NCBI RefSeq assembly: GCF_027947575.1
Contig: NZ_CP116256.1
Location: 4,402,001 to 4,466,000 of the forward strand
From: Streptomyces rubrogriseus
GTDB taxonomy: Bacteria > Actinomycetota > Actinomycetes > Streptomycetales > Streptomycetaceae
Length of the DNA stretch: 64,000 nucleotides
Direction: 5' to 3'
A model generated the notes under the pieces. The model did not search any database, was not told the origin of the DNA, and was given only the letters and a program-made list of their open reading frames with translations. Positions within the stretch are counted from its first letter, which is position 1; each line of letters opens with the position of its first letter. Shown here piece by piece: positions 13,152 to 45,602 of this stretch. The translations under genes and the position numbers were made by a program.

Positions 13152-13303
13152 GCACCTGGCCGGAGCAGCAAGCTGAACAGGGCCGCGGAGTCATTCCCGG
13201 GTAGACAAGTGCTGTGCTGTCGGTACCCCTCCGTACCCTTGGCATCAACTGCTGGGGCTTACGGCCCCGCCGGGCCTTGGAGCATGGAAAGCGGGACCAC
13301 ACA

Positions 13304-16093: not shown

Positions 16094-16107
16094 CACGGCT
16101 GGACCGA

Positions 16108-16152
16108 AGCCCTTCAGGACAGTGAAGGGCCCCGAGGACTCCGGGGGCCCTC
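16108..16152 (+). terminator. Two overlapping stem-loops after the AlbA_2 gene
   Basis: CCCTTCA ... TGAAGGG forms a 7-bp stem. It overlaps a second stem in which AGGGCCCCG pairs with CGGGGGCCCT around a short loop. The stems share the AAGGG stretch, so they are mutually exclusive. Position 15 bp after the stop codon fits a terminator; there is no U-tract, as is usual in Streptomyces. Confidence 0.6.
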
Positions 16153-16334
16153 CTCCGTGTCCTGCACCCTCGACGGCGGGCAGCTGCGCGGCAGTCATGC
16201 TCAGCGGAGCAAGATCTCCAGGAGTTGATCGAAGAAGCCGTCGACCACAGACAGTGCGGCCGCAGTATCGGGGAGTTCAGCCCCTCCGAACCGGTACACC
16301 TCGTAACCAAGCAGATGCGTGCACGGCTCGCCGA

Positions 16335-23184: not shown

Positions 23185-23487
23185 GGGGCACTCCCGCTCG
23201 CGTGGACGCCAGCCTGCACTCGGAGACGGTACTTGAGCTATCCCCGACCGGCGTGGTCCCGCCTGTCGCGCCTCCGCGTGCACGGCCCCTACCTCCTGAT
23301 CGCCGCAAACACCCCGGCGCGCTCCGCAACCCCCGCTCGCGCGGGCGCTACGCAAGGGCGCCTTCCATGGCGCGCGGGTACCTCGCGTCACTCCCGCTCC
23401 TGCGGGCGATAAGCCTCGGCGATCCACGTGACATCATGCGCCGGGTGTCACCCCTCCCGGGGGCACTCCCGCTCACGCGGACTGACC
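23185..23487 (-). CRISPR. Strongly degenerate CRISPR remnant
   Basis: Repeat-like units occur at about 23185 (CACTCCCGCTCGCGTGG), 23240 (CTATCCCCGACCGGCG), 23327 (ACCCCCGCTCGCGCGGGC), 23387 (CACTCCCGCTCCTGCGGGC) and 23460 (CACTCCCGCTCACGCGG). Spacing is irregular. It lies between the IS630 element and an IS5-type relic and is probably a broken piece of a longer array. Confidence 0.65.
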
Positions 23488-23534
23488 GGCCAAGTGTAAG
23501 GCGAACACCTTGCTGTCCGCGTTGCTCTTGCGTG

Positions 23535-24039
23535 CGGGCGTTAAGGCTTGAGAGCAAGGCTGTCGCGGGTCTTCGCGGCAGAGACCGCGGTGACCAGCGG
23601 TAGACCCTGGGCGTCAGTCAAGATGTGGATCTGCCGGGTTTGCCCCGGTGGACCGGATTCGGCCCTACGAGCTGGCCCCCCTTTTCGCCCGGACCGAGGC
23701 AGAGTCGACCAGAGCAGCCGACCAGTCGATCACCCCTGCGGCACCCAGCCTGTCAAGGACTTCGTTGTGGAGGCGCCGCCACAACGAAGTCCTTGTCCAT
23801 GCAGTAAACCGGCGGTGCGCAGTGGCCGGGCTCACGCCGAAGCAGGGCGGTAGGCGACGCCAAGCACACGACGTGGTCAGCGCGTACACGATCGCGCAGA
23901 ACACTTTCCGGTCCGTCACCGGAGCCGTTCCACCGCCCTGCCGACGTGGTTTGAACGGCGGTATCAGTGGCACCGCAATCTCCCACAGCCCGTCAGGAAT
24001 GAGATCGCGCTCAAGATCCACAGCCACACTGGCGATCAT
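23535..24039 (-). pseudogene. IS5-family transposase, 3'-truncated and frameshifted
   Basis: The N-terminal half is complete from 24039: IPDGLWEIAVPLIPPF, APVTDRKVFCAIVYALTTSCAWRRLPPCFGVSPATAHRRF and VDSASVRAKRG. A -1 shift at AAAAGGGG leads to GPNPVHRGKPGR and, after another base change, IHILTDAQGLPLVTAVSAAKTRDS. Similarity ends at about 23535, beside a CRISPR repeat. The first shift matches the frameshift site in the two other IS5-type copies of this window; the second is a true defect. An inverted repeat of about 14 bp (ACTTCGTTGTGG ... CCACAACGAAGT) lies at 23759-23791. Confidence 0.78.
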
Positions 24040-24117
24040 GCCTCAAAGCGGCTCCGTCCGATGCCGACCCAGCCGGGAGCGCGACGGCTGCCCAGCCCGG
24101 TCTTCTAGCCTGACCGC

Positions 24118-24555
24118 GTGATCGACTACGACGACTCCGGCCGCCCTATGGTCCACGTGGGGAACTCCGGGCCCGCACGCCTACTGCTCTCGGAGCCGAC
24201 CCGGCGGTACGAGGACGAACCAACAATCGACTTCCTCATCAGGGCCCGCGGACCCTGGGGAAGTATCGAAACCTCGGTGGAGACCTGGGACGGCGACGGT
24301 CTCGACACTTTCCTCGCGTCACTTGCCGAAGACTTCCGGGGCTGGAAAGGAGTGCGCACCTGGCACTCCCTCTGCTACGACCTGATCCTCTCAGCGGAAC
24401 ACCACCCTGGTGGCCACGTCCGATTGACGTGGGGAATCCGCGACCGGGCACCCTCCGAGGAATGGCAGTTCGAGACCATCACGATGCACGCGGCAGGGGA
24501 GGACATGCGCAACCTCAGTGCCGAGATCCACACGCTCATCGCGAGCGTCGCGTAG
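24118..24555 (+). CDS. DUF6228-like protein
   Basis: A 145-residue soluble protein from a GTG at 24118. The pattern ETSVETWDGDGLDTFLASLAEDFRGWKGVRTW (about 53-84) followed by GGHVRLTWGIRD (about 99-110) and a C-terminal AGEDMRNLSAEI is what I associate with the Streptomyces DUF6228 family. Function is unknown. Small beta-rich proteins of this sort are often immunity-like. It is alone, between an IS relic and CRISPR remnants, and appears intact. Confidence 0.62.
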   Translation: MIDYDDSGRPMVHVGNSGPARLLLSEPTRRYEDEPTIDFLIRARGPWGSIETSVETWDGDGLDTFLASLAEDFRGWKGVRTWHSLCYDLILSAEHHPGGHVRLTWGIRDRAPSEEWQFETITMHAAGEDMRNLSAEIHTLIASVA

Positions 24556-24614
24556 TAACTGAACGAACCCCGAAGCCGGTCCCCACCACGTGAGATGACG
24601 CCTTATACCAGGGG

Positions 24615-24766
24615 GCGGGGGACTCCCCCTCGCGCTTGCACTATTGGTTGTTGGCGGGGCTTGGCTTCAGCGGCAGCGAATCATTCCCGCTCGCGCGGGA
24701 CTACGTCCTGCGTAAGCAGGAGGATGAGATGCGGCGCGAGTCACCCCCGCTCGCGCGGGCACTGCG
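24615..24766 (-). CRISPR. CRISPR remnant: three repeats with spacers shared with the array at 32 kb
   Basis: Repeats lie at about 24617 (degenerate), 24678 (CATTCCCGCTCGCGCGGG) and 24738 (CACCCCCGCTCGCGCGGG). The two spacers, around GGCTTGGCTTCAGCGGCA and TGCGTAAGCAGGAGGATG, are near-identical to the first two spacers of the array starting at 32018, and the flanking GGGGGCG stretch is shared too. This is a duplicated fragment of the leader-distal end of that array. Confidence 0.8.
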
Positions 24767-32017: not shown

Positions 32018-33315
32018 TGGCTCCCCCCCCTCGCGCTGGCACTACTGGATGTAAGCGGAGCCTGGCTTCAGCGGCACCGAGTCACCCCCGCTCGCGCGGG
32101 CACTACGTTCTGCGTAAGCAGGAGGATGAGCTGCGGCGCGAGTCATTCCCGCTTGTGCGGACACCAAGTATTCCACCACATGGTGAAGGAGACCGAGGCC
32201 GTATCACCCCCGCTCGCGCGGGCGTTACGTCTCACCGGGCCGAGTGGTGATAGGCATGGCTCCCGGTCGAAGGGCCTCCGGAGAAACGCGTGGCCGTTCG
32301 ACCAGGGCGGTCGGGTCACTCCCACTCGTGCGTAACGCGGCGCCGTGAAACCTGCGCACCGTCATGACCGCGTCACTCCCGCTTGCGCGGGCGTAATGGG
32401 TGCAGCAATGAGAGCGAGACGAGATCGCTGGAGCCACACCCGCTCACGCGTGCTCTACTGAACGATCCATGCCCGCCCGGACATCGTCGAATCACTCCCG
32501 CTCACGCGGATTTGCGGGCAGGTACCCACCGTTGAGCCGCAGTGGAGAGAGTCACCCCCGCTCCGTGGCCGGTCAGGGTTTATGCGCCGGGTTACTCCCG
32601 CTTGCGCGGGCTTCCGATGGTACATCTGCAGAACACAGAGATCGAGTCACTCCTGCTTGTCCGGGCTCCGCCGATGGAAGTGCAAGGCGATGGTCGTCAG
32701 CGTCGGGTCACTCCCGCTCGCGCGGGCTCCATGCATTCCATGACAACACTCGCATCCCCGCCGACGGGTCACTCCCGCTTCCATCCCGCTCGCGTGGGCT
32801 CCACCCGATCACTGCTGCCGCGTGCGCGCTGTAGTGGGTGGGAGTCACTCCCGCTCGCGCAGGCTGTGCAGAAACGTGCGGGATCGTTCGGTCAGTGCGG
32901 TCGGAGCATTCCTGCTCGCGCAGGCTTCACGGCGCCGGTGTTGCCAGCGGACTCGACCTCTGAGATCACTACAGCCCGGCGTGTGCCGGAATCCCTGCGT
33001 TGAACACAGCGGGCCAGAGAACCGAGTTGCTCCCGCTCGTGCGAGCGCTACGTCCACGAGCGGCGGGACGCCCGGACCGGGCCCTGCCAGCCAAAAGCTC
33101 CAGGGGAGTCACCCCCGCTCACGCAGGCACAACCTGGTGTTCAGCCCGTTCAGTAGGTACGCGTACGAGTCACTTCCGCTCGCGCGGGCTCCACACCGCA
33201 GCGATCGGCACCACTGACGACGGACGCGGGTCATCCCTGCTCGTGCGGGCGTTCCACTACGTGATCATCCATAGCAGCCTGGACGGCGAGTCATCCCCGC
33301 TCGCGCAGGCGTTAC
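32018..33315 (-). CRISPR. CRISPR array A, about 21 degenerate type I-E repeats
   Basis: Repeats of 28 bp occur mostly at 61-bp steps from 32018 (32079, 32140, 32201, 32313, 32370, 32431, 32489 and on to 33106, 33167, 33228, 33288). The core CTCCCGCTCGCGCGGG is best preserved at the right end and decays leftward. Several steps deviate (40, 55, 76 and 82 bp), showing deletions and insertions. On the minus strand the repeat follows the I-E layout. The leader-like sequence lies to the right (33316-33428), so transcription should run leftward. The first two left-end spacers recur at 24.6 kb. Confidence 0.92.
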
Positions 33316-33428
33316 CCTCTCTGGCCTGGACACTCTAGCGTATTTTGCTTGCATTTTGCATGGGTTGAGTAGGGGAAGGATGATACGACCGACCGAAGAC
33401 CTCGTACTGCCTCCGGGGCGTGCTTCGG
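33316..33428 (-). promoter_or_regulatory. CRISPR leader-like sequence A
   Basis: The stretch begins CCTCTCTGGCCTGGAC and contains AT-rich TATTTTGCTTGCATTTTG, unusual for this genome. It aligns over about 110 bp with the sequence after array B (33790-33905), including GATGATACGACCGACC and AAGTCGCC. A conserved, AT-rich block at the same end of two arrays is what a leader looks like. Read on the minus strand it lies directly upstream of array A. Confidence 0.65.
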
Positions 33429-33789
33429 AAGTCGCCTGCCCCCGCTCAACGGGCTCGGCAACGCTGCGGTCACCGTCCTGGACAGGAAGTCTGGATCACC
33501 CCCGCTACCGCAGGCTTACCTCATCGTCCAAACGCGCGGGTTCTTCAGGCCGTTGGCCACCCGGATCGACACCAGCGTTGGGTCACTCCCGCTCCCGCAG
33601 GCGGCACGAGACGGCGGACAACATGCTCACCTCCCGGGCCGAGTCACTCCTACTCGCGCAGGCGCTACTTCGGGGCCGTCCGATCCGGTTCGCCACCCTC
33701 GAATCACTCCCGCTCGCGCGGGCGTTACGGCGTATCGAAACGGGTGTTGAGCGAGAGCCGGGAGTCATCCCCGCTCGCGCGGGCGTCAC
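33429..33789 (-). CRISPR. CRISPR array B, six repeats
   Basis: Repeats lie at about 33429 (degenerate), 33491, 33579, 33640, 33701 and 33762. The last two have the near-consensus core CTCCCGCTCGCGCGGG or TCCCCGCTCGCGCGGG. Spacing is 61 bp except for one longer step. The first spacer, with AACGCTGCGGTCACCG, is shared with the array at 16.3 kb and the remnant at 13.1 kb. A leader-like block follows on the right. Confidence 0.9.
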
Positions 33790-34008
33790 CCTCTCTGACC
33801 TGGGCAACCTAGCGCATTTACCCGTCTTTGCTTGAGTCTGGGTAGAGGAATGATGATGCGACCGACGATCTCGTACTGCTTCCAGGCATACTGCAGAAGT
33901 CGCCAGCCAGCCGATGACCTTGTTGCTGGCCCCGGAGGCGACAGCCCGCTGCCTCGTGGCCGGATAGATCACGAAGTTTCCCACGGCCAACGCGGCAAAG
34001 ACGCTGGA
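33790..34008 (-). promoter_or_regulatory. CRISPR leader-like sequence B with an adjoining coding-like remnant
   Basis: The first 115 bp match leader A (CCTCTCTGACCTGGGC, GATGATGCGACCGACG, CAGAAGTCGCC). Further right, 33900-34000 reads leftward as FAALAVGNFVIYPATRQRAV ... KVIGWLATSAVCLEAV, which looks like the end of a protein I cannot identify. Thus the duplicated unit may once have included a gene end upstream of the leader. Confidence 0.5.
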
Positions 34009-34846
34009 CGCGGTGCCCCCGCTCGCGCGGGCGTTCCGCTCTTCCGTGGCGCATGCGAGCGATCTCCAGGCCACGGTAGGGGCTGCCGCATGTATGTGTC
34101 CGGCCGCGGTGTCCACCGTCCGTTCCGGGAGAGTGGCAACCCGATGGCGCCCCGGGGTGCCGCCGCTCGTGCGGACGCTGCGTCTTCTGCTTGTACGTCT
34201 TCTTACTGATGGTCGTGTCACTCCCGCTCGCGCGGGCGCTACCTGATCATCGACGTCACCGACCCGAATCCTGCCGAGTCACTTCCGCTCGCGCAGACGC
34301 TACTCCACCAAGGTTGCGCGGATCATCGTGCCCGTCGAGTCATCCCCGCTCGCGCGGGCGCTACCGGTGGCGAATCGTGGGCCGGGACGCGGTCGTCGAG
34401 TCATTCACGTTTCCGCGGACTGCACTGGCCTGGTTCATGAGTCGCTGGCTGAGCAACTCTGATACGCACGGACTGTACTACTTACGTTTAAAGTCTGCAG
34501 CCACGGAAGGCCAATTCAACTCCGCTCACGCAGGCTCCACCCCATTGTGGAAACGCACTGGAGTACGTCGCCGAGTCCCCACGCTCGCGCGGGCGCTACG
34601 CAACCGGCAGCCGTTCCCGGACAGCCCGAACGGGTCACTCACTCCCGCTCGCGCGGGCGCTGCGGCGCCGGCTACGTAGAGCTGCTGCCGGTGCGCGGGT
34701 CACTCCCGCTCGCGCGGGTGCTGCGACTGCGAAGGCGGCCGCCGTGTCTACCTCGCCGGGCCACTCCCGCTCGCGCGGGCGCTGCTGGTCGGCGCTGTGG
34801 GCCATTGCGAGCAGCGGCGGGTCACTCCCGCTCGCGCGGGCGCTGC
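34009..34846 (-). CRISPR. CRISPR array C next to cas3, about 12 repeats
   Basis: Repeats lie at 34009, 34158, 34216, 34277, 34338, 34399, about 34512, 34573, 34637, 34698, 34758 and 34819, mostly 61 bp apart. The four at the right end share the core CACTCCCGCTCGCGCGGG almost exactly; those further left are degenerate or missing. This gradient is expected when the leader is on the right, beside cas3. The spacer at about 34242 is identical over at least 30 bp to one at 16842. Confidence 0.92.
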
Positions 34847-34968
34847 CCTCTCCGGCCCGGCGGTTCTGGCATGGTGTGCCTGTCATTTGCTTCTGACTGG
34901 CTGGGAGATGATGGCACACGGGACTGGATGCACGGCAGGAATCTCTGCTTTCTGGCGTTCGTGGTCTC
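34847..34968. promoter_or_regulatory. Leader C and probable divergent promoter region of cas3
   Basis: This 122-bp block begins CCTCTCCGGCCC, like leaders A and B, and contains a less GC-rich stretch (CTGTCATTTGCTTCTGACTG). It separates the best-preserved repeat end from the cas3 start, so it should hold the leftward array promoter and a rightward cas3 promoter. No sigma-factor boxes could be assigned with confidence. Confidence 0.5.
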
Positions 34969-37866
34969 GTGAGCAGCACGGGGTGGCAGCGTTGGGGGAT
35001 GGGAGTTGTTGAGGATGCCCGGTATGACGGTGTTGACCGTCGTCCGTGGGGGAAGTTCGACCGCACGACGCTGAGGGTGTACTCGCTGCTGTTCCACCTG
35101 ATCGATGTGGGGGCGGTGGCCGGGGTGCTGTGGGACCGGTTCCTGACCCCGAGCCAGCACCGGGTCATCAGCGCAGGGCTCAACATGCCGCAGGAGCAGG
35201 CGCGTTCGGTGGTGTGTTTCCTGGCTGCCATGCACGACAACGGGAAGCTGATCCCGTATTTCCAGGCTCTCGAGCCTGCGGCGTATGTGCGGCTGGGGGA
35301 GGACCTGTTGGCGGACACGGGCCCGGTGGTGCATGTGCCGCACGCGCGTGCGTCGATGCATGTGGGGCTGCAACTGCTGAGCGAACTGGGATTCGCCGTT
35401 GGCGGTAACGACAGTCCCGCTGTTCGTGCTGCGCAGTGTCTGGGCGGGCATCATGGCCGGTTCCTGCAACTCGACGTGGACGGGGCGGCGTCCGCCCAGC
35501 GGGTGGAGGCCACGTTGGGCGGGCCCGCGTGGCAGGATCTGCGTCGCCGCTACGCCCGGCTGCTGTGGCACCTGTTCGGCGTCGATGAGGCTTCGGAGCG
35601 GCTGTCGGTGGAGGCGGCCGTGCTGATCACGGGGCTGACGATGGTCGCGGACCGGGTTGCGAGTCAGCGCCGGTACTGGGTGCCCAACGCGGACACGCCG
35701 TCCTTCGGCGCCGCCGAGCACCACAGCCGCGCCCGTCGGCAGGCAGAGGAGGAAGTCGAGCGGCTCGGCCTTACCCGCTTCGCATTGGACCGGATCCCGT
35801 TCACCACCGCGCACCCGGGACTGGAGGAACCGAACGCTCTGCAGCGTTCCGTGATGGAGGAATTGCCGCGCCTGGTCGCCGAGCGGGGGAGCGGCATCGC
35901 GGTCGTCACGGACGCGATGGGCACGGGCAAGAGCGTGGCCGCGCTGGAGATGGCGCGGATCTTCAACGAGCACTGCGGTACCCAGGGGCTGATGTGGCTG
36001 CTGCCGGCGACGGCCGCCGCCGATCAGGCCTACGAGGTCCTGGACCGCTATGTGCGCGCCCACCAGCCCGGGTACGCGCCGGTGACGCTGGTGCACCACC
36101 ACAGCGACCTCAACGAGGCATACACCGGCCGGATCCTGTCCCCGGCCGACGCCACCGTCGTGGACGGGCCGCCCGACGACCCGTTCACCGACGACCAGGA
36201 CGACTCCTTTGCCGACGACGAAACCGAGTACGGTCCGGGCGCCGCGGGGCCCGACCGGTGGCTGCGTGGCAGGGACAACGCACTGTTGGCCCAGTACACC
36301 GTCTCCACCACTGACCAGGCACAGATGGCAGTCCTGCCCGTCCGCCACAGTGCGCTGCGCATGCTGGCTCTGTCGGGCAAGACCGTTGTGGTCGACGAAG
36401 CCCACGCGCTGGACCCGTTCAGCCAGCTCCAGCTGCTGCGCCTGCTGCAGTGGCTGGGAGCCCTGAACTGCCCGGTCGTCCTGCTGTCGGCGACGATGCC
36501 CGCATCGACCGCCACCGACCTGGTGCGGGCCTACCTGTGGGGCGCTGGCCGTACTGGTCTGCACGGTGCCTCGTTCGCCCCCGGCTATCCCAGGTGGCTG
36601 TTCGCGGATGCGGCGACCGCCGTCGTCCACCGCATGCCCGAGCAGGCCCAGGACGAGCAACGGGCCGTCCAACGCAGGAGCGCACGCATCCACGTCCGCC
36701 CGGTCACCTACCGGCCCCTGGGGCCGGCCGGCCGTACGGTCGAAGCGGGGGAGCGCCTTGCGGTGGTCGCCGACGTGCTCCAGCGGGTCATCCGCCACAG
36801 CGGGTGCGCGGCCGTGGTGTGCGCGACGGTCGGCGACGCGCAGGACACCTACCAGTACCTGCGCCGCATCTGGAGCGGCGCGCCTGACGACCTGGTCCTC
36901 GTCCATGCCCGGGTGAGGGGGCGGCGACGGCAGAGCACACTGGGAGACCTCCGCCACCGGCTGGGTCCGACGGGCCCGCGCCCGGCCCGGCGCGTCTTCG
37001 TCACCACCAGTCTCCTCGACGTGAGTCTGGACATCGACGTCGACCTGATGGTCAGCGACCTCGCCTCTGTGGCACGCCTGCTGCAGCGCATGGGCCGTCT
37101 GGGCCGCTTCACACGCCTGTGGACCGGACAGGGGCGTCGGCCCGTCTGGTGGGACGGGGAGAACAGTCCGACGCTGACGGTGCTGCACCCGGTCAACTCC
37201 CGTGGCGCGACCGCCCTGCCGCCCGGCTGGGACACGGTCGAGCCCGCTGTCGCCCTCCATGAAACCGCCCGGCTCCTGCCGGCCCTGGAGAAACAACCGC
37301 TCGTCGTCCCCGACGACGTCCAGGCTCTCGTCGAACAGGTCCACGGTGTCACCTCCGGGTTCGCAGCCCAGACGACGCGCCTGCAGCAGATGGCCGCCGC
37401 CCACCAGGCCCGCACCAGCCGCCAGGAGCAGCTCAGCGCAGTCCACCTGGTACCCCCGCCCAAACGGGTCTCTTCCCTGGCCGACCTGCACCGCCAGCAC
37501 CTCACCACCGCCCAGGCCGCAACCAGGCCCGGTGTCCTGCCCCGCCGGCTGCTGCCCTGTTACCGAAGTGCCGACGGCACGCTGACGCTCGACGCAGCAG
37601 GCCTGCTGCCGCTCCCGGACCAGGAACACCTCGGCCCGCGCCACCTGCGCAGCGTCCTCGAACACTCACTGCCCGTCCCGGCCGCCTGGGTCGCCCGCGC
37701 TTCCGCCCCGCACCAGCCGCCCGCCAGCTGGAAGCAGCACCCCCTGCTCGCCGACATCGTGCTGCTGCCCACCGACTCCGTAACCCGTGAGAGTGAACAT
37801 CATTTCGGCCAGCACTGGCTCCGCATGGACGAAGAACTCGGCCTCCAACACCGCAAACAGCAGTAA
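34969..37866 (+). CDS. cas3: Cas3 helicase-nuclease, type I-E
   Basis: A 965-residue Cas3 in HD-then-helicase order. The HD nuclease shows SLLFHLIDVGAVAG (His43), AAMHDNGKLIPYFQ (His89, Asp90), CLGGHHGRF (His161-162) and MVADRVAS (Asp228). The SF2 helicase shows Walker A DAMGTGKSVAALEMA (about 315-329), VVVDEAHALDPFS (DEAH), VVLLSATMPAS (SAT) and LLQRMGRLGRF (motif VI). All key residues seem present, so it should be able to unwind and cut target DNA recruited by Cascade. The GTG start at 34969 or an ATG at 34999 are both possible. cas8e follows after a 334-bp gap with its own possible promoter. Known CRISPR-associated transposons normally lack Cas3. Confidence 0.93.
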   Translation: MSSTGWQRWGMGVVEDARYDGVDRRPWGKFDRTTLRVYSLLFHLIDVGAVAGVLWDRFLTPSQHRVISAGLNMPQEQARSVVCFLAAMHDNGKLIPYFQALEPAAYVRLGEDLLADTGPVVHVPHARASMHVGLQLLSELGFAVGGNDSPAVRAAQCLGGHHGRFLQLDVDGAASAQRVEATLGGPAWQDLRRRYARLLWHLFGVDEASERLSVEAAVLITGLTMVADRVASQRRYWVPNADTPSFGAAEHHSRARRQAEEEVERLGLTRFALDRIPFTTAHPGLEEPNALQRSVMEELPRLVAERGSGIAVVTDAMGTGKSVAALEMARIFNEHCGTQGLMWLLPATAAADQAYEVLDRYVRAHQPGYAPVTLVHHHSDLNEAYTGRILSPADATVVDGPPDDPFTDDQDDSFADDETEYGPGAAGPDRWLRGRDNALLAQYTVSTTDQAQMAVLPVRHSALRMLALSGKTVVVDEAHALDPFSQLQLLRLLQWLGALNCPVVLLSATMPASTATDLVRAYLWGAGRTGLHGASFAPGYPRWLFADAATAVVHRMPEQAQDEQRAVQRRSARIHVRPVTYRPLGPAGRTVEAGERLAVVADVLQRVIRHSGCAAVVCATVGDAQDTYQYLRRIWSGAPDDLVLVHARVRGRRRQSTLGDLRHRLGPTGPRPARRVFVTTSLLDVSLDIDVDLMVSDLASVARLLQRMGRLGRFTRLWTGQGRRPVWWDGENSPTLTVLHPVNSRGATALPPGWDTVEPAVALHETARLLPALEKQPLVVPDDVQALVEQVHGVTSGFAAQTTRLQQMAAAHQARTSRQEQLSAVHLVPPPKRVSSLADLHRQHLTTAQAATRPGVLPRRLLPCYRSADGTLTLDAAGLLPLPDQEHLGPRHLRSVLEHSLPVPAAWVARASAPHQPPASWKQHPLLADIVLLPTDSVTRESEHHFGQHWLRMDEELGLQHRKQQ

Positions 37867-38200: not shown

Positions 38201-39757
38201 TTGTCTGCGTTACCCCCGCCCACCACCTCGTTCAGCGCGGCCGACCACCCCTGGATCGACGTCCGCACCGGCGGCCAGTACGACCAAGTGGGCCTGCGAT
38301 CCCTGTTCCTGGACGCCCACCGCATCGACGACCTCGCCCTGCCCCAACCACCGGCCGCGTCAGCACTCCTGCGGATCGCGGCCGCCATCACGGCCCGCAT
38401 CACCGGCCTCGACGACCCCGAACTCACCGCCTCCCAGTGGAATGCGCTGCGCCGCAGCCGCCTGACCGAGGGCCGCTTCGACCCGGACGCCGTCCACACC
38501 TACTTCGACCAGCACGGCTGGGACGTCTTCGATCCCGTGAGGCCCTGGCTGCAGACCCCCTCACTGCGCACCGAGTGTGACCACAGCACCGGCATCAACG
38601 CCTTCGTGCCAGGGCGGCCCGCCGGCCGCAACTTTGCCTGGTTCAGCCCGCACGGCCACCACACCGCCGAGCCCGTTCCCACCGCCGAAGCCCTGCAGAT
38701 CCTGCTCATCCACCACTACTACGGGCGTTCCGGCACCGGCACAACCCGCACCCCCCTGGACGGTGTCACCAGCCGGCAGCAGACCAGCGGCCCCTTGCGG
38801 TCCAGCGTGTCCTTCCACCCGCTGGGCCGCACCCTGCATGAGACGCTCCTGGCCGGTGTGCCCGCCTTCACCGGCGACGACCAGCCGCCAGGCGCGGACA
38901 CCTGCCCCTGGGAAGAATCCACGCCACCCGGCCCGCAGACCACGTTGCACGGTCCGGTGACCTGGCCCGGCCGGCAACTGACGGGACTGAGCCGGCACGC
39001 GATCCTCCTCGTGCCCGGCGACGACGGCACCACCGTCACCGACGCCTACCTCACCTGGGCCACCCAGGAAGACAAGCCGATCACCACCGACCCCTACCTC
39101 GCCTACCGCATCACCCCCGAAACCAAGAAGGTCGACCAGCGCCGCATCATCCACCGCGCCGCCGCGTCCCGCGCATGGTGGCGTGACCTGGAAACCCTGC
39201 TCCTGGCCCCGGACGAACACGGCACACAGCTCCGGCCGGCCATCTTCGACACTCTCAACGACCTCCCCGAACCCCTGCGACGCAGCCTGCGGATCCGCGT
39301 CCACGGATTCGACCAGGACGGCCAGGCCGTAGACCTCCAGTGGTACACCGCCATCACGCCGCCCCTGCTGAACTGGACACAGGAACACGACCCGGCCAAG
39401 GCCCAGCGCATCGCCGAGTGCTGCCGGGAAGCCGAACAGGCCGCACGGCGACTGCAGACCGTCGCCAAAAAGGCATGGGACACCGCCATGCGCAGCCGCA
39501 GCCGCCGCCGCACCGCACCGCCCCCCTGGGTGAACAAGTCACTGACCCGCTACTGGCCGAAGGCCGAGACGGTGTTCTGGCGACTGCTGGAAGAACCCGA
39601 CACACCAGCCCCCACGGCGTTCGCGGCCGCGGCCACCGCCGCCCTGCGCGAGACCACCGAAGCCGCCCGGACCCGCCAGACCTCCGCGGCCCGCGCCGTC
39701 GCCCACGCCGTCCAAGAGCTCTACCGCCGGTCCGCCACACCCCGGAAAGCCGCCTGA
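38201..39757 (+). CDS. cas8e: Cas8e (Cse1/CasA), large subunit of type I-E Cascade
   Basis: A 518-residue protein with the I-E large-subunit order: an N-terminal HPWIDVRTGGQYDQVGLRSLFLDAHRI (about 16-42), DCFDPVRPWLQTPSL-like VFDPVRPWLQTP (about 109-120), HGHHTAEPVPTAEALQILLIHHYYGRSGTGTTRT (about 150-185), RTLHETLLAGVP, and a C-terminal four-helix region (about 380-510). Cas8e recognises the PAM and recruits Cas3. It starts at a TTG (38201), which may reduce translation. Its stop overlaps the next start (TGATG). It opens the compact cas8e-cas11-cas7-cas5-cas6e-tnsB-tnsC-like operon. Confidence 0.9.
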   Translation: MSALPPPTTSFSAADHPWIDVRTGGQYDQVGLRSLFLDAHRIDDLALPQPPAASALLRIAAAITARITGLDDPELTASQWNALRRSRLTEGRFDPDAVHTYFDQHGWDVFDPVRPWLQTPSLRTECDHSTGINAFVPGRPAGRNFAWFSPHGHHTAEPVPTAEALQILLIHHYYGRSGTGTTRTPLDGVTSRQQTSGPLRSSVSFHPLGRTLHETLLAGVPAFTGDDQPPGADTCPWEESTPPGPQTTLHGPVTWPGRQLTGLSRHAILLVPGDDGTTVTDAYLTWATQEDKPITTDPYLAYRITPETKKVDQRRIIHRAAASRAWWRDLETLLLAPDEHGTQLRPAIFDTLNDLPEPLRRSLRIRVHGFDQDGQAVDLQWYTAITPPLLNWTQEHDPAKAQRIAECCREAEQAARRLQTVAKKAWDTAMRSRSRRRTAPPPWVNKSLTRYWPKAETVFWRLLEEPDTPAPTAFAAAATAALRETTEAARTRQTSAARAVAHAVQELYRRSATPRKAA

Positions 39758-40392
39758 TGTCCACCGCAGCCGAACACCGCGCCTCCTGCGACGCGTTCGT
39801 CGCCCACATCCACCTCCTGTGCGCCGAACCCGGCGTCCGGGTCCGCCTCAGCCGGGGGAGAGGCCGACCCGTAGAGGAATGCGCCCCCATGGACCGCTAC
39901 CTGGCCCGGCGCACCGCGCACCGCCAAGGACGCCGCGCCTACTACACCGTCGCGAGCCTCATCGCGATGGCCGGACCCCAGTCCCACACCCCGGGCGTCC
40001 GCCCCGACCACGACGCCGGCCTCCTCAACCCCGAGGACGGCCCGGACGGGCTGCTCGTCGCCCCCGTCGAACCCGCCCCACCACCAAAGCCGGACCCGGC
40101 CGCCTGGTACGCCCGGCCGAACCTCGGTGCCACCCTCGCCACCGCCGTACGCCGAGCGGGCCACCAGGCTGAGCGCACCGAGAGCCTTCTCCACGTCCTG
40201 ACCCGCCTCAGCGACGACCAACTCCACCGCCGGCTGCCCGCACCCGTCACACGGCTGCTGCAGGACGGCATCACCCCCGACTGGGCAGTCCTCCTGAACG
40301 ACCTGGTGCAGCGCCCCTACCGCCGTGACAAGGTCGGACTGCGCTGGCGCGACGCCTTCTACCTCGCCACTCCCGAACCCCGGCGCATCTGA
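39757..40392 (+). CDS. cse2: Cas11e (Cse2/CasB), small subunit of Cascade
   Basis: 211 residues from an ATG overlapping the cas8e stop. Helical, with LARRTAHRQGRRAYYTVASLIAMAG (about 49-73) and, after a Pro-rich insert, NLGATLATAVRRAGHQAERTESLLHVLTRLSDDQLHRRLPAPVTRLLQDG (about 123-172). The C-terminal end DWAVLLNDLVQRPYRRDKVGLRWRDAFYLA is the typical Cse2 signature. It forms the belly of Cascade and holds the non-target strand. Confidence 0.9.
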   Translation: MSTAAEHRASCDAFVAHIHLLCAEPGVRVRLSRGRGRPVEECAPMDRYLARRTAHRQGRRAYYTVASLIAMAGPQSHTPGVRPDHDAGLLNPEDGPDGLLVAPVEPAPPPKPDPAAWYARPNLGATLATAVRRAGHQAERTESLLHVLTRLSDDQLHRRLPAPVTRLLQDGITPDWAVLLNDLVQRPYRRDKVGLRWRDAFYLATPEPRRI

Positions 40393-40601
40393 AGCACGCA
40401 GAGGCGGCAGCCGGCTCCGGCCAGCCCCTGCAGGACCTGCCGACGTCCCCGGCGCCCGCCAAACCCCGCACCATGCCACGGCGCACGACTGGCCGGCCAC
40501 CAGTACAGTGCCGGCCCCCCTCGTCCCTCTTGTTCCGGCAGCCCCGTCCCGTGGGCTGCATCAGCGGCATGCCCGCCGCCTCACCGCGAAAGAGCCCCTT
40601 C

Positions 40602-41765
40602 ATGCACACCCCCGCACGCTTCCTCGACCTGCACATCCTGCAGCCCGTGACCGCGGCGAACCTGAACCGCGACTCCGACGGCGACCCCAAGACCATCCTC
40701 TTCGGGAACACGACCCGGGCCTTCGTCTCCCCTCAGGCGTGGAAGCGGCCCATCCGCCTCAACGTCGAGCAGGACCTGGGCGAGCACGCCGCCCGCACCC
40801 GCATGGTGCCGCCCCTCGTCGCCCGGAAACTGCAGGAAGCCCAGTGGCCCGAGGACCTCGCCGCGTTCGCGGCGGCCCAGATCGTCCACTCGGCCAAGGA
40901 CAAGGGCCTGCAGCACAACGACCAGGAGGGCTACCGCACCCAGGCCATGCTCTACCTCCCCAAGGACGTCATCGACGACCTCGTCGCCCTGTGCGAAAAG
41001 CACCGCACCGACCTGGAAGAAGCACTCGCCGCCCACAGGCCCAAGAAGCAGATCGCACCGGTCCTGCCCGCCAAAGACCTCGCCGCGCACCTGACCCGCC
41101 GCACCGCGAGCATCAACCTGTTCGGACGGATGCTCGCCGAAATCCCCGCCGGCCACGTCGAAGCAGCCGTGCAGATGGCCCCCGCCTTCTCCGTGCACCA
41201 AAGCGACCCGCAGCCCGACTTCTTCACCGCAGTGGAAGACCTCCCCCAGGACGGGGACTCCGGCAGCGCCCACCTCCAGACCGCGTTCCTGACCACCAGC
41301 CTTTTCTACCGTTTCGCCACCATCAACATCACCGACCTCCACCGCAATCTCGGCCCCAGCGCCACCGCCGGCACGGTCAAGGATCTCGTCGAACTCTTCG
41401 TCCAGCACTTCATCCTCAGCATGCCCAGCGGCAAGAAGACCGCCACCGCACCGCACACCGTGCCCGACCTCGTCCACTACGCTGTCCGCGACCGCCGCTC
41501 CGTCTCCTACGGCGCCGCCTTCGAACAGCCCGTCACCGCCCCCGCCCACGGCGGCTACACCGCCCCCGCCCGCCAGGCGCTCGCCGACTACGCCGCCACC
41601 ATGAGCCGCCTGCTCGGCACCCGCCACCTCGTCGCCCACGGACACACCGGCACCCAGGCCAAGCCCGTCAAGGACCTTGGCTCCCGCCACACGTCCTTCG
41701 ACGCCCTCGCCGCCGCCTGCGCCGCCGCCGCGACCGCCGATCTCACCCCCACGGGCCGGCCGTGA
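40602..41765 (+). CDS. cas7e: Cas7e (Cse4/CasC), backbone subunit of Cascade
   Basis: 387 residues from the ATG at 40602. The start is FLDLHILQPVTAANLNRDSDGDPKTILFGNTTRAFVSPQAWKRPIR in the family order, followed by ASINLFGRMLAE (about 155-166), AVQMAPAFSVHQSDPQPDFFTAVED and SLFYRFATINITDLHRNLG. These are the conserved crRNA-binding elements of I-E Cas7. Six copies would form the backbone along the crRNA. The frame is open further upstream to 40473, but the conserved MHTPARFLDLH start is clear. The 209-bp stretch before it holds no other gene. Its stop overlaps cas5e (GTGA). Confidence 0.93.
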   Translation: MHTPARFLDLHILQPVTAANLNRDSDGDPKTILFGNTTRAFVSPQAWKRPIRLNVEQDLGEHAARTRMVPPLVARKLQEAQWPEDLAAFAAAQIVHSAKDKGLQHNDQEGYRTQAMLYLPKDVIDDLVALCEKHRTDLEEALAAHRPKKQIAPVLPAKDLAAHLTRRTASINLFGRMLAEIPAGHVEAAVQMAPAFSVHQSDPQPDFFTAVEDLPQDGDSGSAHLQTAFLTTSLFYRFATINITDLHRNLGPSATAGTVKDLVELFVQHFILSMPSGKKTATAPHTVPDLVHYAVRDRRSVSYGAAFEQPVTAPAHGGYTAPARQALADYAATMSRLLGTRHLVAHGHTGTQAKPVKDLGSRHTSFDALAAACAAAATADLTPTGRP

Positions 41766-42571
41766 CCGGCCTCGTCCTGCGCCTGGCAGGCCTGCTGCAG
41801 TCCTCCGGCGAACGCGGGGTCTTCCACTACCGCGACACCTGCGCCTTCCCCACCCGCTCCTCACTCATCGGCATGTTCGCCGCCGCGCAGGGCCGCCCCC
41901 GCGAACACGCCCTCGACCCCTACCCCCACCTGAAGACACCCGGTGACACCACCGCCCCGAGCCACCGCGACCTGACCCTCAGCCTCCGCATCGACCAGCC
42001 CGGCACCCGCTACCGCGACTTTCACACCGTCGGCGGCGGCCGCCCCCGCGAGCAGGGCCTTCACACCGGCGAAGGCGCCCGGCGAAAGGTGGCCGCCGCC
42101 ACCCTCGTCTCCCACCGCGACTACCTCACCGACGCCGTCTTCACCGTCGCCGTCACCGGGCCCGCCCTCCTCATCGGCCACATCGCCGAAACCCTGGAGC
42201 GGCCCCGCTTCGGACTGTTCCTCGGCCGCCGAGCCTGCCTGCCCGACGAACCCCTCGTCCTCAACCCAGACAGCCCCGACCCCGTCGAGGAACTGCTCAC
42301 CCGCGTCCCGCTGACCCGCAGCCGCCCGCCCGGCCCCGCCGACACCCACCTGCCCACCACCTTCGTCTGGGAACACCCGCCCCCCGGCACCGACCCCGCC
42401 ACACCGCCCGACCGGGAAAGCACCAGCGAACCCGTCAACCTCACCCGCCATGCCCGGCGCCACCTGCCGCGCCCCTTGTGGATGACCACCGAAGCTCTGC
42501 CCGCTCACCTCTACACAGGCCCCAGGCCCCTCGACGCCCTCACCACGTATATGCACGGAGCACCCGCGTGA
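41762..42571 (+). CDS. cas5e: Cas5e (CasD), crRNA 5'-handle binding subunit
   Basis: 269 residues from a GTG overlapping the cas7e stop. The N-terminal LVLRLAGLLQSSGERGVFHYRDTCAFPTRSSLIGMFAAAQGR and the central GTRYRDFHTVGGGR, VSHRDYLTDAVFTVAV and LERPRFGLFLGRRACLPDEP are diagnostic of I-E Cas5. It caps the crRNA 5' end and contacts Cas7 and Cas8e. The stop overlaps the cas6e start by 4 bp (GTGA). No defects are seen. Confidence 0.93.
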   Translation: MTGLVLRLAGLLQSSGERGVFHYRDTCAFPTRSSLIGMFAAAQGRPREHALDPYPHLKTPGDTTAPSHRDLTLSLRIDQPGTRYRDFHTVGGGRPREQGLHTGEGARRKVAAATLVSHRDYLTDAVFTVAVTGPALLIGHIAETLERPRFGLFLGRRACLPDEPLVLNPDSPDPVEELLTRVPLTRSRPPGPADTHLPTTFVWEHPPPGTDPATPPDRESTSEPVNLTRHARRHLPRPLWMTTEALPAHLYTGPRPLDALTTYMHGAPA

Positions 42572-43211
42572 CCAGCCTCTCCCGCCTCATCCTCGACCCC
42601 GGCCATCCAGCGGTCAGAGCAGACCTTGCCGACGTCGACAGCCTCCACAAGACCCTGATGCGTCTGGTCTCCGACCACGCCGGTCCCACCCCCCGGGCCA
42701 GGGCCGGCCTCCTGTTCCGCACCGAACCCGGACCCGATCCCGTCCTCCTCGTCCAGACTGCCAACCCGCCCGACCTCACCGCCCTGCCCGCCCACTACGG
42801 CACCGGCCGCACCCTCGACCTCACCCCTCTGCTGAACTCCCTCACCCCCGGCCGCACGGTGCGCTACCGCATCACCGCCGCCCCCACCGTCGCCCGCTCC
42901 GCAGGCAACCCCACCCCCACCCCGTCACCGGAAAGCGCCGCGGCAAGATCACCCACCTCACCGGCGACGACGCCCTCGCCTGGTGGCAGCGCCGCGCCAC
43001 CGCCGCAGGACTCGAACCCGTCACCATCACCTCCCTCCCACGCCCCTTTCCCCGCACCCGCGTGACGCGCTCGGCCCCCTACTTCACGCTCACCCAGTTC
43101 GACGGCCTCGCCCGCATCACCGACACCACCCCCCTCACCGACGCACTGAAGAACGGCATCGGCCGGGCCAAAAGCTACGGAGCCGGCCTCCTCTCCCTCG
43201 CCCCCGCCTGA
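42568..43211 (+). pseudogene. cas6e: Cas6e (CasE) crRNA-processing nuclease with a -1 frameshift
   Basis: The start (GTG 42568, overlapping cas5e) reads LSRLILDPGHPAVRADLADVDSLHKTLMRLV, with the likely catalytic His in SLHKT, and TPRARAGLLFRTEP. Near 42909-42923, in a C-rich run (CCCCACCCCCACCCC), the family sequence moves to the -1 frame and continues VTGKRRGKITHLTGDDALAWWQRRATAAGLEP ... FDGLARITDTTPLTDALKNGIGRAKSYGAGLLSLAPA to 43211. The glycine-rich RNA-binding loop is intact there. The frame as written ends at 43065 without it. A one-base loss, a sequencing error in the C-run or slippage are all possible. If real, crRNA maturation would fail. Confidence 0.85.
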
Positions 43212-43239
43212 CCTGCCCCGACCAGAAGGCACACCCCGG

Positions 43240-44799
43240 ATGCCACACCCGCCCGACCATCAAGCCCTGCGCGCCGCCGCCATCCACCGCCTCTACACCC
43301 TCGAGCAGTCGGAGCGGCTCACCCGCGCCCGGATCGCCGGCGTCGCCGACGCATTCGGCGTCGATCCCCGTACTGTTGACCGCTGGCTCGCCAACGCCCG
43401 AGCCAACAACGGCACCTACCAGCCCCCCAGCCGCACCAGCTTCGTCCTCACCCCGCACATGCTCGACGCGGTGACCCGCTGGCGCGGCAACGCCACCGCC
43501 GCCTGGAAAGAACTACAAGCTGAAGGCCACCCCGTGCCCTCGCTGGCCACCTTCCACCGCGCCACGAACAAAGCCCTCACCCCCGGCATGCGGGCCGGCC
43601 TCCGCGCCGGCGAGAGAGCTCGCCGGCGTTTCGACGTGGCCGGTGAACGTGAACGGCACCACCGCAACTACGCCTGGGAAACCGACCACGTCGAAGCCAG
43701 CGTCAAAGTCCGCGTCGAAGGCCACATCCGCAAACCCTGGATCACCTTCTTCGTCGACTGCGCCACCTCGGCCATCTGCGGCCTCGCCATCAGCCCACAA
43801 CGCCCCAGCCGCGAGGGCGTCCTCGTCGCCATCCGCGACGCCATCCTCATCGACGAACACCAGGGCCCGTTCGGCGGCATCCCCACCTACCTGCGCGTCG
43901 ACGGCGGCAAAGAGTTCCTGTGCGCCACGGTCACCGAAGCCCTCGGCGTCCTGGGAACCGAGATCATCGCCCTGCCGCCCTTCACCCCCGAAGGCAAAGG
44001 CAACGTCGAAGCCGTCAACGGAGCCATCAAGAAGACCCTGTTCGCCGGCATGCCCGGCTACACCCACGCCCCCACCCTCCGCGGCGGCAAACCCGTCGAC
44101 CCCGACCAGCCACTGCTCCACTTCGAAGTGTTCGTCGACCATGTCCTCACCTGGGTCCACCGCTGGAACCACGAGAACACCCTCAAAAGCCTGGACGGCC
44201 GGACTCCCCGCCAGGCCTGGGACGCCGACCCCGCACTCATCGACACCGTCAGGGCCGAAGACCTCCACACCTACACCCTCGAACGCCACGGCAAACCCCT
44301 GACCATCAACAACAGCGGCGTCCGGTGGCGCAAGCGCAACTACATCGCAGACTGGATGCACGGCCGCGTCGGCGAGAAAGTCGACCTGCGCTACCTCCCG
44401 CACCACGATCACCGCGTCGAGCTCTACGACCCCCACACCGGCCGCCACCTCGGCCCCGCCACCATGACCGCACAGGCCACCCCGGAACAGGCCCTCAGCC
44501 TCAAACAAGCCCGGCGCCGCGAAGCCGACCGCCTGCGCGCCCAACTGAAGAAGGCCGAGAAGAACCGCAACGAACGCTACGCAGCCGCAACCCGCCCCTC
44601 ACCACCCGTCCCGCTGGACACGATGCCCGAAGAAGAAGCCCTCGAGTACCTGCGCACCCTCGACGGCTTCACCCCGGCCGCAGAAGCCCTGCCCGACCTC
44701 ATCAAACTGCCCGAACCCGACGCCGCACTGACCCGGCCACTCGACCCCCGCACCACACCGCCATCCACCCCGCCCGCACCACCCGAGGACCAGCCGTGA
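43240..44799 (+). CDS. MuA/TnsB/TniA-like DDE transposase in the cas operon
   Basis: A 519-residue retroviral-integrase-fold transposase. The N-terminus holds a helix-turn-helix (RARIAGVADAFGVDPRTVDRWL, about 29-50) and a second DNA-binding region. The catalytic core has WETDH (Asp149), YLRVDGGKEF (Asp221) and GKGNVEAVNG (Glu257), an exact D,D-35-E spacing. About 345-400 is the Mu-type C-terminal beta-barrel (VRWRKRNYIADWMHGRVGEKVDLRYLP). An acidic, Pro-rich tail of about 90 residues follows, where TnsB-type proteins contact their ATPase. It begins 28 bp after cas6e and overlaps the ATPase gene (GTGA), so it is co-transcribed with Cascade. IS481/IS21-type enzymes are shorter and lack the barrel. 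Confidence 0.88.
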   Translation: MPHPPDHQALRAAAIHRLYTLEQSERLTRARIAGVADAFGVDPRTVDRWLANARANNGTYQPPSRTSFVLTPHMLDAVTRWRGNATAAWKELQAEGHPVPSLATFHRATNKALTPGMRAGLRAGERARRRFDVAGERERHHRNYAWETDHVEASVKVRVEGHIRKPWITFFVDCATSAICGLAISPQRPSREGVLVAIRDAILIDEHQGPFGGIPTYLRVDGGKEFLCATVTEALGVLGTEIIALPPFTPEGKGNVEAVNGAIKKTLFAGMPGYTHAPTLRGGKPVDPDQPLLHFEVFVDHVLTWVHRWNHENTLKSLDGRTPRQAWDADPALIDTVRAEDLHTYTLERHGKPLTINNSGVRWRKRNYIADWMHGRVGEKVDLRYLPHHDHRVELYDPHTGRHLGPATMTAQATPEQALSLKQARRREADRLRAQLKKAEKNRNERYAAATRPSPPVPLDTMPEEEALEYLRTLDGFTPAAEALPDLIKLPEPDAALTRPLDPRTTPPSTPPAPPEDQP

Positions 44800-45602
44800 G
44801 CGCCCCCGCCACCTCGCCCCGCCCCAGCCAGCTCCCACCACCCAGCCAGGACCACTACCTGGGCCTCACCGGAGCCAACGCCATGGCCACCAAAGCCGTA
44901 GCCGAAACCGAAACCCGCATCCTCAAAGCCATCAAGCACAACGCCCTGGTCTGCATCCACGGACACGTCGGACTCGGCAAAACCTTCGCCGTCCACACCG
45001 TCCTACGACGCCACGCCCCCGAAACGACCGTACGGCTGCGCTACAACACCGGCGCCAACATGAACGAAATCCGCACCCAGCTCTGGCGCCGCCTCGACCT
45101 GCCCGGACCACCCCCGCAGTCCGTCGGCCCCTGCGACCAGCAGATCCACGACGCACTCGAAGCCGAGCCACGCGTCCTGCTCATCGACGAAGTACAAGGA
45201 CTTGGAACCAAAGCACTGGAGTACTTCCGCACCCTGTGGGGCGACGACGCACGCCGCGCCCCCATCATCCTCGTCGGCAGCGGCAACGCTCGGCAGAAGA
45301 TCCTCAACAATCCCGCCCTGCACTCCCGCATCCTCGACTGGTACCAGTTCAGCCCCCTCACCCCCACCGAAGTCCAGGCCGTCATCCCCGCCTACCAGCG
45401 CATCTGGGCCGACGCGCAGCCCGAACTGATCCTGTACACCGACGACATGGCAGGCCACGGATCCTTCAGGAACTGGGCACGAATCACCCTCCTTCTCCAC
45501 GACGCCCTCGAAGAAAACCCCGGCCTCACCCTCAGCAAAGACCTCATCCGCTGGGTACTCAGCCGCCTCGACCCCACCACCCGCCACACCCCGCAACGCT
45601 GA
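44796..45602 (+). CDS. TnsC/TniB/MuB-like AAA+ ATPase in the cas operon
   Basis: 268 residues from a GTG overlapping the transposase stop. Walker A is IHGHVGLGKTFAV (about 55-66), Walker B RVLLIDEVQGLG (Asp131, Glu132), a sensor-like IILVGSGN follows, and the C-terminal part is helical (FSPLTPTEVQAVIPAYQRIW, GHGSFRNWARITLLLHDAL). This is the target-choosing ATPase of Tn7/Tn5053/Mu-type systems, which links a targeting module to the transposase. No TniQ/TnsD-type gene and no TnsA is seen before or after it. It is the last gene of the operon; nothing like a transposon end was found in the 500 bp downstream. Confidence 0.85.
   Translation: MSAPATSPRPSQLPPPSQDHYLGLTGANAMATKAVAETETRILKAIKHNALVCIHGHVGLGKTFAVHTVLRRHAPETTVRLRYNTGANMNEIRTQLWRRLDLPGPPPQSVGPCDQQIHDALEAEPRVLLIDEVQGLGTKALEYFRTLWGDDARRAPIILVGSGNARQKILNNPALHSRILDWYQFSPLTPTEVQAVIPAYQRIWADAQPELILYTDDMAGHGSFRNWARITLLLHDALEENPGLTLSKDLIRWVLSRLDPTTRHTPQR

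What the first reader, a model, noticed from the sequence alone, without database searches (positions are those of the whole stretch)
38201..45602. Type I-E Cascade operon that continues into TnsB-like and TnsC-like transposition genes in place of cas1-cas2
The sequence shows cas8e-cse2-cas7e-cas5e-cas6e followed after 28 bp by a MuA/TnsB-like protein with D149, D221 and E257 (D,D-35-E) and a Mu-type C-terminal barrel. A TnsC/TniB-like AAA ATPase follows with a 4-bp overlap. Actinobacterial I-E loci usually end in cas1-cas2. CRISPR-associated transposons are established for other subtypes (for example I-F, I-B and V-K); I do not know of a characterised I-E one. The operon structure suggests that Cascade, TnsB-like and TnsC-like proteins are made together, which could be RNA-guided transposition with a new arrangement.
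Basis: partly seen in the sequence, partly recalled or inferred. Interest (0 to 1): 0.93.

Follow-up and report, generated by a model that had tools for sequence, protein, structure and literature searches.

The report
CRISPR operon armed against sister transposons
A Streptomyces CRISPR system without the usual spacer-capture genes carries two transposase genes instead, aims guides at rival linear plasmids and at sister copies of those same transposase genes, and in some relatives has lost the cutting site of its DNA-shredding enzyme while keeping the rest, so the job of the transposase pair can now be tested.

Summary
The operon is real: cas3-cas8e-cse2-cas7e-cas5e-cas6e-tnsB-tnsC, no cas1 found in the 8.4-Mb contig. 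Corrections: cas3 and arrays lie upstream of the finding; cas6e is frameshifted here (in frame in 22 other carriers). The locus type is already in print (Faure 2019, seen through PMC12231136 and PMC8730458), with an alternative-adaptation hypothesis. Carrier TnsBs form one clade; TnsB and TnsC keep active-site residues under purifying selection.

What I add. (1) Carrier guides match conserved genes of Streptomyces linear plasmids and chromosome ends, and tnsB/tnsC of CRISPR-less sister elements, mostly beside NTT (PAM AAN); own tnsBC differs by 9-15 bases. Guides from cas1-bearing control arrays do not show this. (2) Almost every repeat differs, yet shared spacers are conserved. (3) One carrier lineage (four genomes here) lost six or seven of seven Cas3 HD-nuclease residues but kept helicase and tnsBC; a Cas3 tree needs two such losses.

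Best reading: an RNA-guided weapon in conflicts between linear replicons. The TnsBC role stays open: array renewal, RNA-guided insertion or ordinary mobility. No transposon ends found; TniQ absent from 7 of 9 carrier genomes. New variant of a known kind.

The parts
32018..34846 (-). main CRISPR array (transcribed from the minus strand by repeat orientation, inferred), 28-nt repeats, mostly 61-nt period, almost every repeat different
13123..16961 (-). scattered remnant repeats and spacers of the same family (13123; 16335-16961)
23185..24765 (-). scattered remnant repeats; 24617-24765 is a diverged copy of 32018-32168
34847..34968 (.). leader-like stretch between last repeat and cas3; similar stretches follow the repeats at 33288 and 33762
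   Evidence: (family D10)
34969..37866 (+). cas3, HD nuclease and helicase residues present
38201..39757 (+). cas8e (cse1)
39757..40392 (+). cse2 (cas11e); start codon inferred
40602..41765 (+). cas7e; start codon inferred
41762..42571 (+). cas5e
42568..43212 (+). cas6e, frameshifted between its halves in this genome (about 42900-42935); in frame in 22 other carriers
43240..44799 (+). tnsB-like DDE transposase (D149, D221, E257)
44796..45602 (+). tnsC-like AAA ATPase (Walker A GHVGLGKT, Walker B LIDE)

Best explanation
A type I-E interference operon that joined, once, with a TnsB/TnsC pair from a family of telomere-proximal actinobacterial tnsB-tnsC operons, and that serves one linear replicon (or its host) against other linear replicons and against sister tnsBC elements. 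Arrays of long-lived, individually diverged repeat-spacer units are processed by Cas6e; crRNAs take Cascade to AAN-flanked sites in a few conserved target genes (terminal helicase, tpg, regulator, relaxase, and tnsB/tnsC of CRISPR-less relatives); Cas3 unwinds and, in most lineages including this one, degrades the target. Shown: operon, guide matches and PAM, sparing of own tnsBC, array anatomy, constraint on spacers and on TnsB/TnsC, Cas3 nuclease loss in one lineage. Inferred: that this is interference or competition, and the TnsB/TnsC step. My split for that step: array renewal (alternative adaptation) about 0.35, ordinary mobility of the locus about 0.25, RNA-guided insertion or breakage about 0.2, something else 0.2.
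For: Targets: 14 of 183 carrier spacers match tnsB or tnsC of 81 non-CRISPR regions at 6 mismatches or fewer, nearly always beside NTT, own tnsBC 9-15 mismatches away, 0 of 183 shuffled spacers; 32 of 180 carrier spacers have a non-array match at 5 or fewer mismatches in 105 fetched loci, NTT beside the best match in 25 of 32, shuffled 0 of 180 (five further rows, copies of one array in L119, dropped). Unbiased collections: 19 window-type spacers hit 110 plasmid records (109 Streptomyces) and 2 weak phage records; 19 spacers drawn at random from 10 other carrier loci hit 92 plasmid records and no phage; 19 random spacers from seven cas1-bearing control arrays hit 6 plasmid records (E 0.2) and 7 phage records (best E 1e-4). 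New loci repeat it: 8 of 32 and 5 of 29 spacers. Constraint: spacers shared by window and L082 differ at 7 of 394 sites against dS 0.13-0.24 in the operon. TnsB dN/dS 0.19-0.31, TnsC 0.03-0.26.
Against: No interference was measured. The locus pool is biased, as it was fetched through TnsB; only searches are not. Homologous spacers are counted more than once. In 26 carrier genomes 5 have an intact cas1, no rarer than the genus base rate (53 of 199), so classical adaptation in trans is possible. cas6e is broken in this very strain. The Cas3 nuclease-dead lineage shows that target degradation by Cas3 is dispensable in some carriers. Some matches lack NTT: 7 of 32; both helicase guides of L118.
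Confidence: 0.65

Rival explanations
1. TnsB/TnsC are an alternative adaptation module that inserts new spacers or shuffles repeat-spacer units in place of Cas1-Cas2 (Faure et al. 2019, as reported in PMC12231136 and PMC8730458). Compatible with the best explanation.
For: 20 of 26 carrier genomes have no cas1 of this type yet hold arrays whose guides have protospacer length and PAM. Spacer content turns over between carriers: L010 and L011 (dS 0.19-0.34) share one spacer at 6 mismatches; L003 and L006 (dS 0.06-0.12) share three at 3-4 mismatches; L003 and L116 differ at the leader end and share older units. Repeats are almost all different, unlike copies of one leader repeat.
Against: window, L002 and L082 share their leader-most spacers at dS 0.06-0.24: no visible gain there. 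Similarity of repeats to the leader repeat shows no consistent trend (mean rho 0.15, 11 of 16 arrays positive, two significant positive, one negative). A TnsB-type integrase would be expected to duplicate about 5 bp, not a 28-bp repeat (recalled). cas1 in carriers is as common as in the genus.
Confidence: 0.35
2. RNA-guided insertion or breakage: Cascade (with helicase-only Cas3 in some lineages) recruits TnsC and TnsB to the guide target, a I-E system that works like a CAST without TniQ.
For: One lineage (L010, L011, G398, G489) lost six or seven of seven Cas3 HD residues, with helicase residues, TnsB D,D,E and TnsC Walker A intact and the HD region still constrained (dN/dS 0.17 for L010-L011); 24 of 121 Cas3 relatives are of this kind with none between 3 and 6 residues, in two clades; 8 of 8 cas1-bearing control Cas3 are intact. 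These nuclease-dead carriers still hold PAM-matched guides against tnsB/tnsC. PMC11656645 (passage) says CAST I-D can act without TniQ.
Against: No ends: in pairs from different subgroups conservation stops within about 23 nt of the tnsC stop or before it; inverted 14-mers are not in excess around five carriers. No guide was found next to a carrier locus; the best self match in this genome has 6 mismatches and no NTT. Cas3 is intact in most carriers, this one included. TniQ absent from 7 of 9 carrier genomes. Guide-directed silencing without cutting, as described for type IV-A in PMC11656645, would also explain a dead nuclease.
Confidence: 0.2
3. An ordinary transposon or linear-plasmid cargo: TnsB/TnsC move the locus with cryptic ends, and the CRISPR part is cargo that fights sister elements.
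For: Carriers sit in varied contexts: mid-chromosome here, a linear and a circular plasmid, near chromosome ends. CRISPR-less sister tnsBC pairs occur near both chromosome ends in several genomes and are guide targets.
Against: No ends or inverted repeats around carriers; three of 32 sister loci exceed shuffles (L045, L049, L050), not followed up. The conserved unit ends at the tnsC stop. Spread could be by plasmids alone.
Confidence: 0.25

Closest known systems
I-E loci of Streptomycetaceae with tnsB-tnsC in place of cas1-cas2 (Faure et al. 2019 Nat Rev Microbiol; not held, seen through passages of PMC12231136 and PMC8730458)
   Same: Same gene order, no cas1-cas2 in the operon, array present, no transposon ends.
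   Different: Those passages call the loci competent for interference and propose adaptation. I saw nothing there on guide targets, on guides against sister tnsBC, or on Cas3 nuclease loss in a lineage.
CRISPR-associated transposons (I-F, I-B, I-D, V-K)
   Same: TnsB closest to V-K TnsB; TnsC like MuB and ShCAST TnsC; nuclease loss in one lineage.
   Different: Cas3 intact in most carriers, no TniQ in 7 of 9 genomes, no ends, no homing guide found, long arrays.
CasMu-I and CasMu-V (PMC10910872, passages)
   Same: Mu-type transposase next to an interference-defective CRISPR module.
   Different: Those are type I-A and type V with defined ends; this is I-E, with cas3, without found ends.
Type IV-A and V-M plasmid systems (PMC11656645, passages)
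   Same: Guides directed at plasmids; nuclease missing or dead with a helicase kept (nuclease-dead lineage only).
   Different: Type I-E Cascade and tnsBC; most carriers keep the nuclease.

Membership tests
Type I-E CRISPR-Cas | cas8e-cse2-cas7e-cas5e-cas6e effector genes with cas3 | tested here: met
   cas6e frameshifted in this strain only
Type I-E CRISPR-Cas | cas1-cas2 adaptation genes | tested here: not met
   no cas1 in this genome; intact cas1 elsewhere in 5 of 26 carrier genomes; cas2 not searched
Type I-E CRISPR-Cas | 61-nt repeat-spacer period and AAN-type PAM | tested here: met
   NTT beside 25 of 32 best matches; AAN for S. avermitilis from a passage of PMC12231136
I-E/tnsB/tnsC loci of Faure et al. 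2019 | cas3-cas8e-cse2-cas7-cas5-cas6 then tnsB-tnsC, no cas1-cas2 in the locus | tested here: met
CRISPR-associated transposon (CAST) | catalytic TnsB and TnsC | tested here: met
   D, D, E in 25 of 25 TnsB rows, Walker A GKT in 25 of 25 TnsC rows (sequence only)
CRISPR-associated transposon (CAST) | TniQ adaptor | tested here: not met
   PF06527 in 2 of 9 carrier genomes; not in G000, G398 or G489; in G267 one copy lies about 2 kb before the array
CRISPR-associated transposon (CAST) | interference nuclease lost | tested here: not met
   Cas3 HD residues intact in the window and 97 of 121 relatives; lost in 24 of 121
CRISPR-associated transposon (CAST) | transposon ends with TnsB sites around the locus | tested here: inconclusive
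   none found; left side only 8-23 kb and right side 0.3-1.5 kb examined in five carriers
CRISPR-associated transposon (CAST) | guide-dependent insertion | not testable with these tools
   needs an experiment

The most novel reading that the evidence does not exclude
In the Cas3-nuclease-dead lineage the transposase is the effector: Cascade plus a helicase-only Cas3 opens the guide target in a rival's tnsB/tnsC or telomere gene, and TnsC/TnsB insert into or break it, a TniQ-free RNA-guided transposase of type I-E used as a weapon against its own sister transposons. In nuclease-proficient relatives such as this window the same guides feed Cas3.
Probability: 0.2. Interest if true: 0.95.

Novelty: new variant of a known kind. 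Interest (0 to 1): 0.72.

Why it matters
What TnsB/TnsC do in I-E loci that lack cas1-cas2 has been an open question since 2019. The guides now name the opponent: conserved genes of linear replicons and the tnsB/tnsC genes of CRISPR-less sisters. A naturally nuclease-dead lineage with everything else conserved separates guide binding from degradation and makes the three readings (adaptation, guided insertion, ordinary mobility) testable in laboratory Streptomyces. If TnsBC is the guided effector, it would be a TniQ-free I-E tool native to high-GC actinomycetes; if it is an adaptation module, it would be a second independent origin of spacer acquisition.

Tried and rejected
Chance neighbours: rejected by conservation and one clade. 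L072, flagged as linked by my script, was dropped: its I-E genes lie 8.5 kb upstream and its TnsB falls in the CRISPR-less clade. L019 counts as CRISPR-less in the tree only because its contig starts at tnsB.

Compensatory changes in repeat stems: not above shuffles (3 in the window, shuffle mean 1.76). A weaker sign of crRNA folding: changes that leave a G-U wobble on the crRNA strand outnumber those that leave an A-C mismatch in six of seven loci (22 to 8 in the window; L116 3 to 3).

Leader gradient of repeats: inconsistent. Codon-position test of independent acquisition: looked at by eye, not conclusive, not used. Self-targeting in the own genome: best candidate has 6 mismatches and no NTT. 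Terminal repeats: none in excess at five carriers; 3 of 32 sister loci exceed 20 shuffles. Third gene of sister elements: no Pfam family at the gathering score. Control differences: repeats of control arrays were found by recurring 12-mers, those of carriers by an iterated weight matrix, and L137 gave no array; shared spacers were accepted only at 4 differences or fewer, which caps the spacer rate.
Full report
What is there. The window is part of an 8.41-Mb single-contig genome. On the plus strand lie cas3 34969-37866, cas8e 38201-39757, cse2, cas7e, cas5e 41762-42571, cas6e 42568-43212, tnsB 43240-44799 and tnsC 44796-45602. cas6e is frameshifted in this genome only: its halves are in frame in 22 other carriers. 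A CRISPR array precedes cas3 (32018-34846) and remnants lie at 13123-16961 and 23185-24765. The genome has no Cas1.

Who else has it. Of 80 TnsB relatives fetched from genome contigs (231 encoded a relative; the best 80 were kept), 18 have cas5e/cas6e directly upstream. In a tree of 105 TnsB rows plus three outgroup proteins the carriers form one clade of 26 rows (25 with cas genes, plus L019 whose contig starts at tnsB), SH-aLRT 100. CRISPR-less relatives are common: 58 of 392 Streptomyces genomes have a TnsB at E 1e-100 or better, carriers included, and many copies lie near both chromosome ends.

What the proteins look like. TnsB matches the V-K TnsB profile and ShCAST TnsB in sequence (3.7e-14) and in a predicted model of moderate quality (pLDDT 77, pTM 0.54) whose best structure matches are ShCAST TnsB, Tn7 TnsB and MuA. 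TnsC (pLDDT 83, pTM 0.81) matches MuB and ShCAST TnsC. D, D, E are kept in 25 of 25 TnsB rows and the Walker A lysine in 25 of 25 TnsC rows. dN/dS is 0.19-0.31 for tnsB and 0.03-0.26 for tnsC over eight pairs.

Arrays. In carriers almost every repeat differs: 52 of 52 in the window, 29 of 29 in L082, 23 of 23 in L124, with L008 lowest at 8 of 11; identity to consensus 0.73-0.92. In seven cas1-bearing control arrays of the genus 3-8 distinct repeats serve 5-69 copies, identity 0.94-0.995; an eighth control gave no array (the two sets were found by different methods). The 61-nt period is kept. Spacers shared by window and L082 differ at 7 of 394 sites, their flanking repeats at 42 of 672, while dS of the operon genes is 0.13-0.24 (units were paired only at 4 spacer differences or fewer). 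So the units are old, the spacers constrained, the repeats freer. Window, L002 and L082 share the leader-most spacers; L003 and L116 differ there; L010 and L011 share almost nothing.

Targets. Among 180 carrier spacers 37 had a non-array match at 5 or fewer mismatches in 105 fetched loci; five were copies of an array in L119 and are dropped, leaving 32; the next three bases are NTT in 25, CTA in 4, other in 3; shuffled spacers gave none. NTT is AAN on the crRNA strand, the PAM that a passage of PMC12231136 gives for S. avermitilis. Targets include a terminal helicase (Pfam HA/ResIII; the name ttrA is recalled), a small HTH protein that I take for the terminal protein gene tpg (recalled), and tnsB and tnsC of CRISPR-less sister elements: 14 of 183 spacers at 6 or fewer mismatches, at six or more different sites, own tnsBC 9-15 mismatches away, shuffled 0 of 183. 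Because that pool was fetched through TnsB it is biased, so I searched whole collections. Nineteen spacers of the window family hit 110 of 72,556 plasmid records, 109 of them Streptomyces (one record is the L082 array itself), and two of 50,697 phage records at E 0.7; of the 59 listed records other than L082, 38 have the hit within 10 kb of a record end (my count; topology not checked). Nineteen random spacers from 10 other carrier loci hit 92 plasmid records (73 Streptomyces; one is the array of L083) and no phage; annotated targets include ATP-binding/TniB-type NTPases, a transposase, HTH regulators and a MobF relaxase. Nineteen random spacers from cas1-bearing arrays hit 6 plasmid records, all at E 0.2, and 7 phage records, best E 1e-4. 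Loci fetched later agree.

A dead nuclease. Checking Cas3 motifs showed that L010, L011 and G398 lost the HD site: seven of seven metal-site residues in L010 and L011, six of seven in G398. G489, a complete genome of another genus, carries the whole operon with seven of seven lost. Among 121 Cas3 sequences (120 listed relatives of L010 Cas3 plus the window) 24 keep at most 3 of 7 residues, 97 keep at least 6, none lie between; helicase K, D, E, R are intact in all 24. The tree needs two changes (clades of 22 and 2 rows). Eight of eight Cas3 proteins next to cas1 in control loci are intact. For the rows known only as proteins, linkage to tnsB rests on the same organism and contig length. The HD region is still constrained (dN/dS 0.17 L010-L011, 0.49 L010-L118, helicase 0.37 and 0.41). 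These carriers still hold guides against sister tnsB/tnsC beside NTT (L151 21 of 21 matches, L118 26 of 26, L011 24 of 25), though two helicase guides of L118 lack it.

What it is not shown to be. Homology between carriers of different subgroups stops within about 23 nt of the tnsC stop or before it. Inverted 14-mers around five carriers are not in excess of shuffles; 3 of 32 sister loci exceed them with 13-mers and were not followed up. TniQ (PF06527) occurs in 2 of 9 carrier genomes and not in this one, G398 or G489; the 14 control genomes of that search have none, so G267 is its positive. Intact cas1 occurs in 5 of 26 carrier genomes (a fragment in one more), against 53 of 199 in the genus, so carriers are not special in this respect.

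Prior work. The locus type is in print (PMC12231136 and PMC8730458, passages; the 2019 original was not held). CasMu-I and CasMu-V are different (PMC10910872, passages). In searches of the held library I saw no paper on guides of these loci against tnsBC or telomere genes, nor on their Cas3 nuclease loss; listings only, apart from the passages named.

Judgement. The guide data make an RNA-guided conflict system the best reading. Which step TnsB/TnsC perform stays open; the nuclease-dead lineage keeps guided insertion alive despite the missing ends and TniQ.

Noticed in passing
window 11186-12785 (-): Remnant of a terminal-helicase gene in three out-of-frame pieces (residues 357-892 of the L063 protein), next to an array remnant shared with L082: a relic of a linear-replicon end inside a chromosome.
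   Followed up: partly
window 33024-33134 region; L003 768-1355; L006 916-1466; L116 7664-8020: A decayed two-spacer cassette with similar sequence recurs several times per array and across species; its function is unknown.
   Followed up: partly
window 33316-33360, 33790-33834, 34847-34890: Three leader-like copies behind repeats (family D10), as if three array-plus-leader units lie side by side.
   Followed up: no
window 45610-55570: About 10 kb, including a SpoIIE-type phosphatase, separates tnsC from a gene (55570-57150) that directly follows tnsC in plasmid L082 at 85.5% identity.
   Followed up: no
sister loci such as L018, L024, L030, L054, L067: CRISPR-less tnsB-tnsC pairs are followed by a third gene of about 370-580 aa without a Pfam family, missing in carriers.
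   Followed up: partly
L017: This carrier keeps only a cas5e end and cas6e upstream of tnsB within 10 kb.
   Followed up: no
P0107: A 909-aa metagenome protein with rve, Mu-transpos_C and AAA_22 domains in one chain: a natural TnsB-TnsC fusion (domain list).
   Followed up: no
L116 about 5018-5449: G267 has a TniQ about 2 kb before its array, near a protospacer of an L011 guide; probably another transposon.
   Followed up: no
L050, inverted repeat at -169 to -153 and about +2645: One CRISPR-less sister locus (Cryobacterium) has a 17-nt inverted repeat around tnsBC, a candidate transposon end.
   Followed up: no
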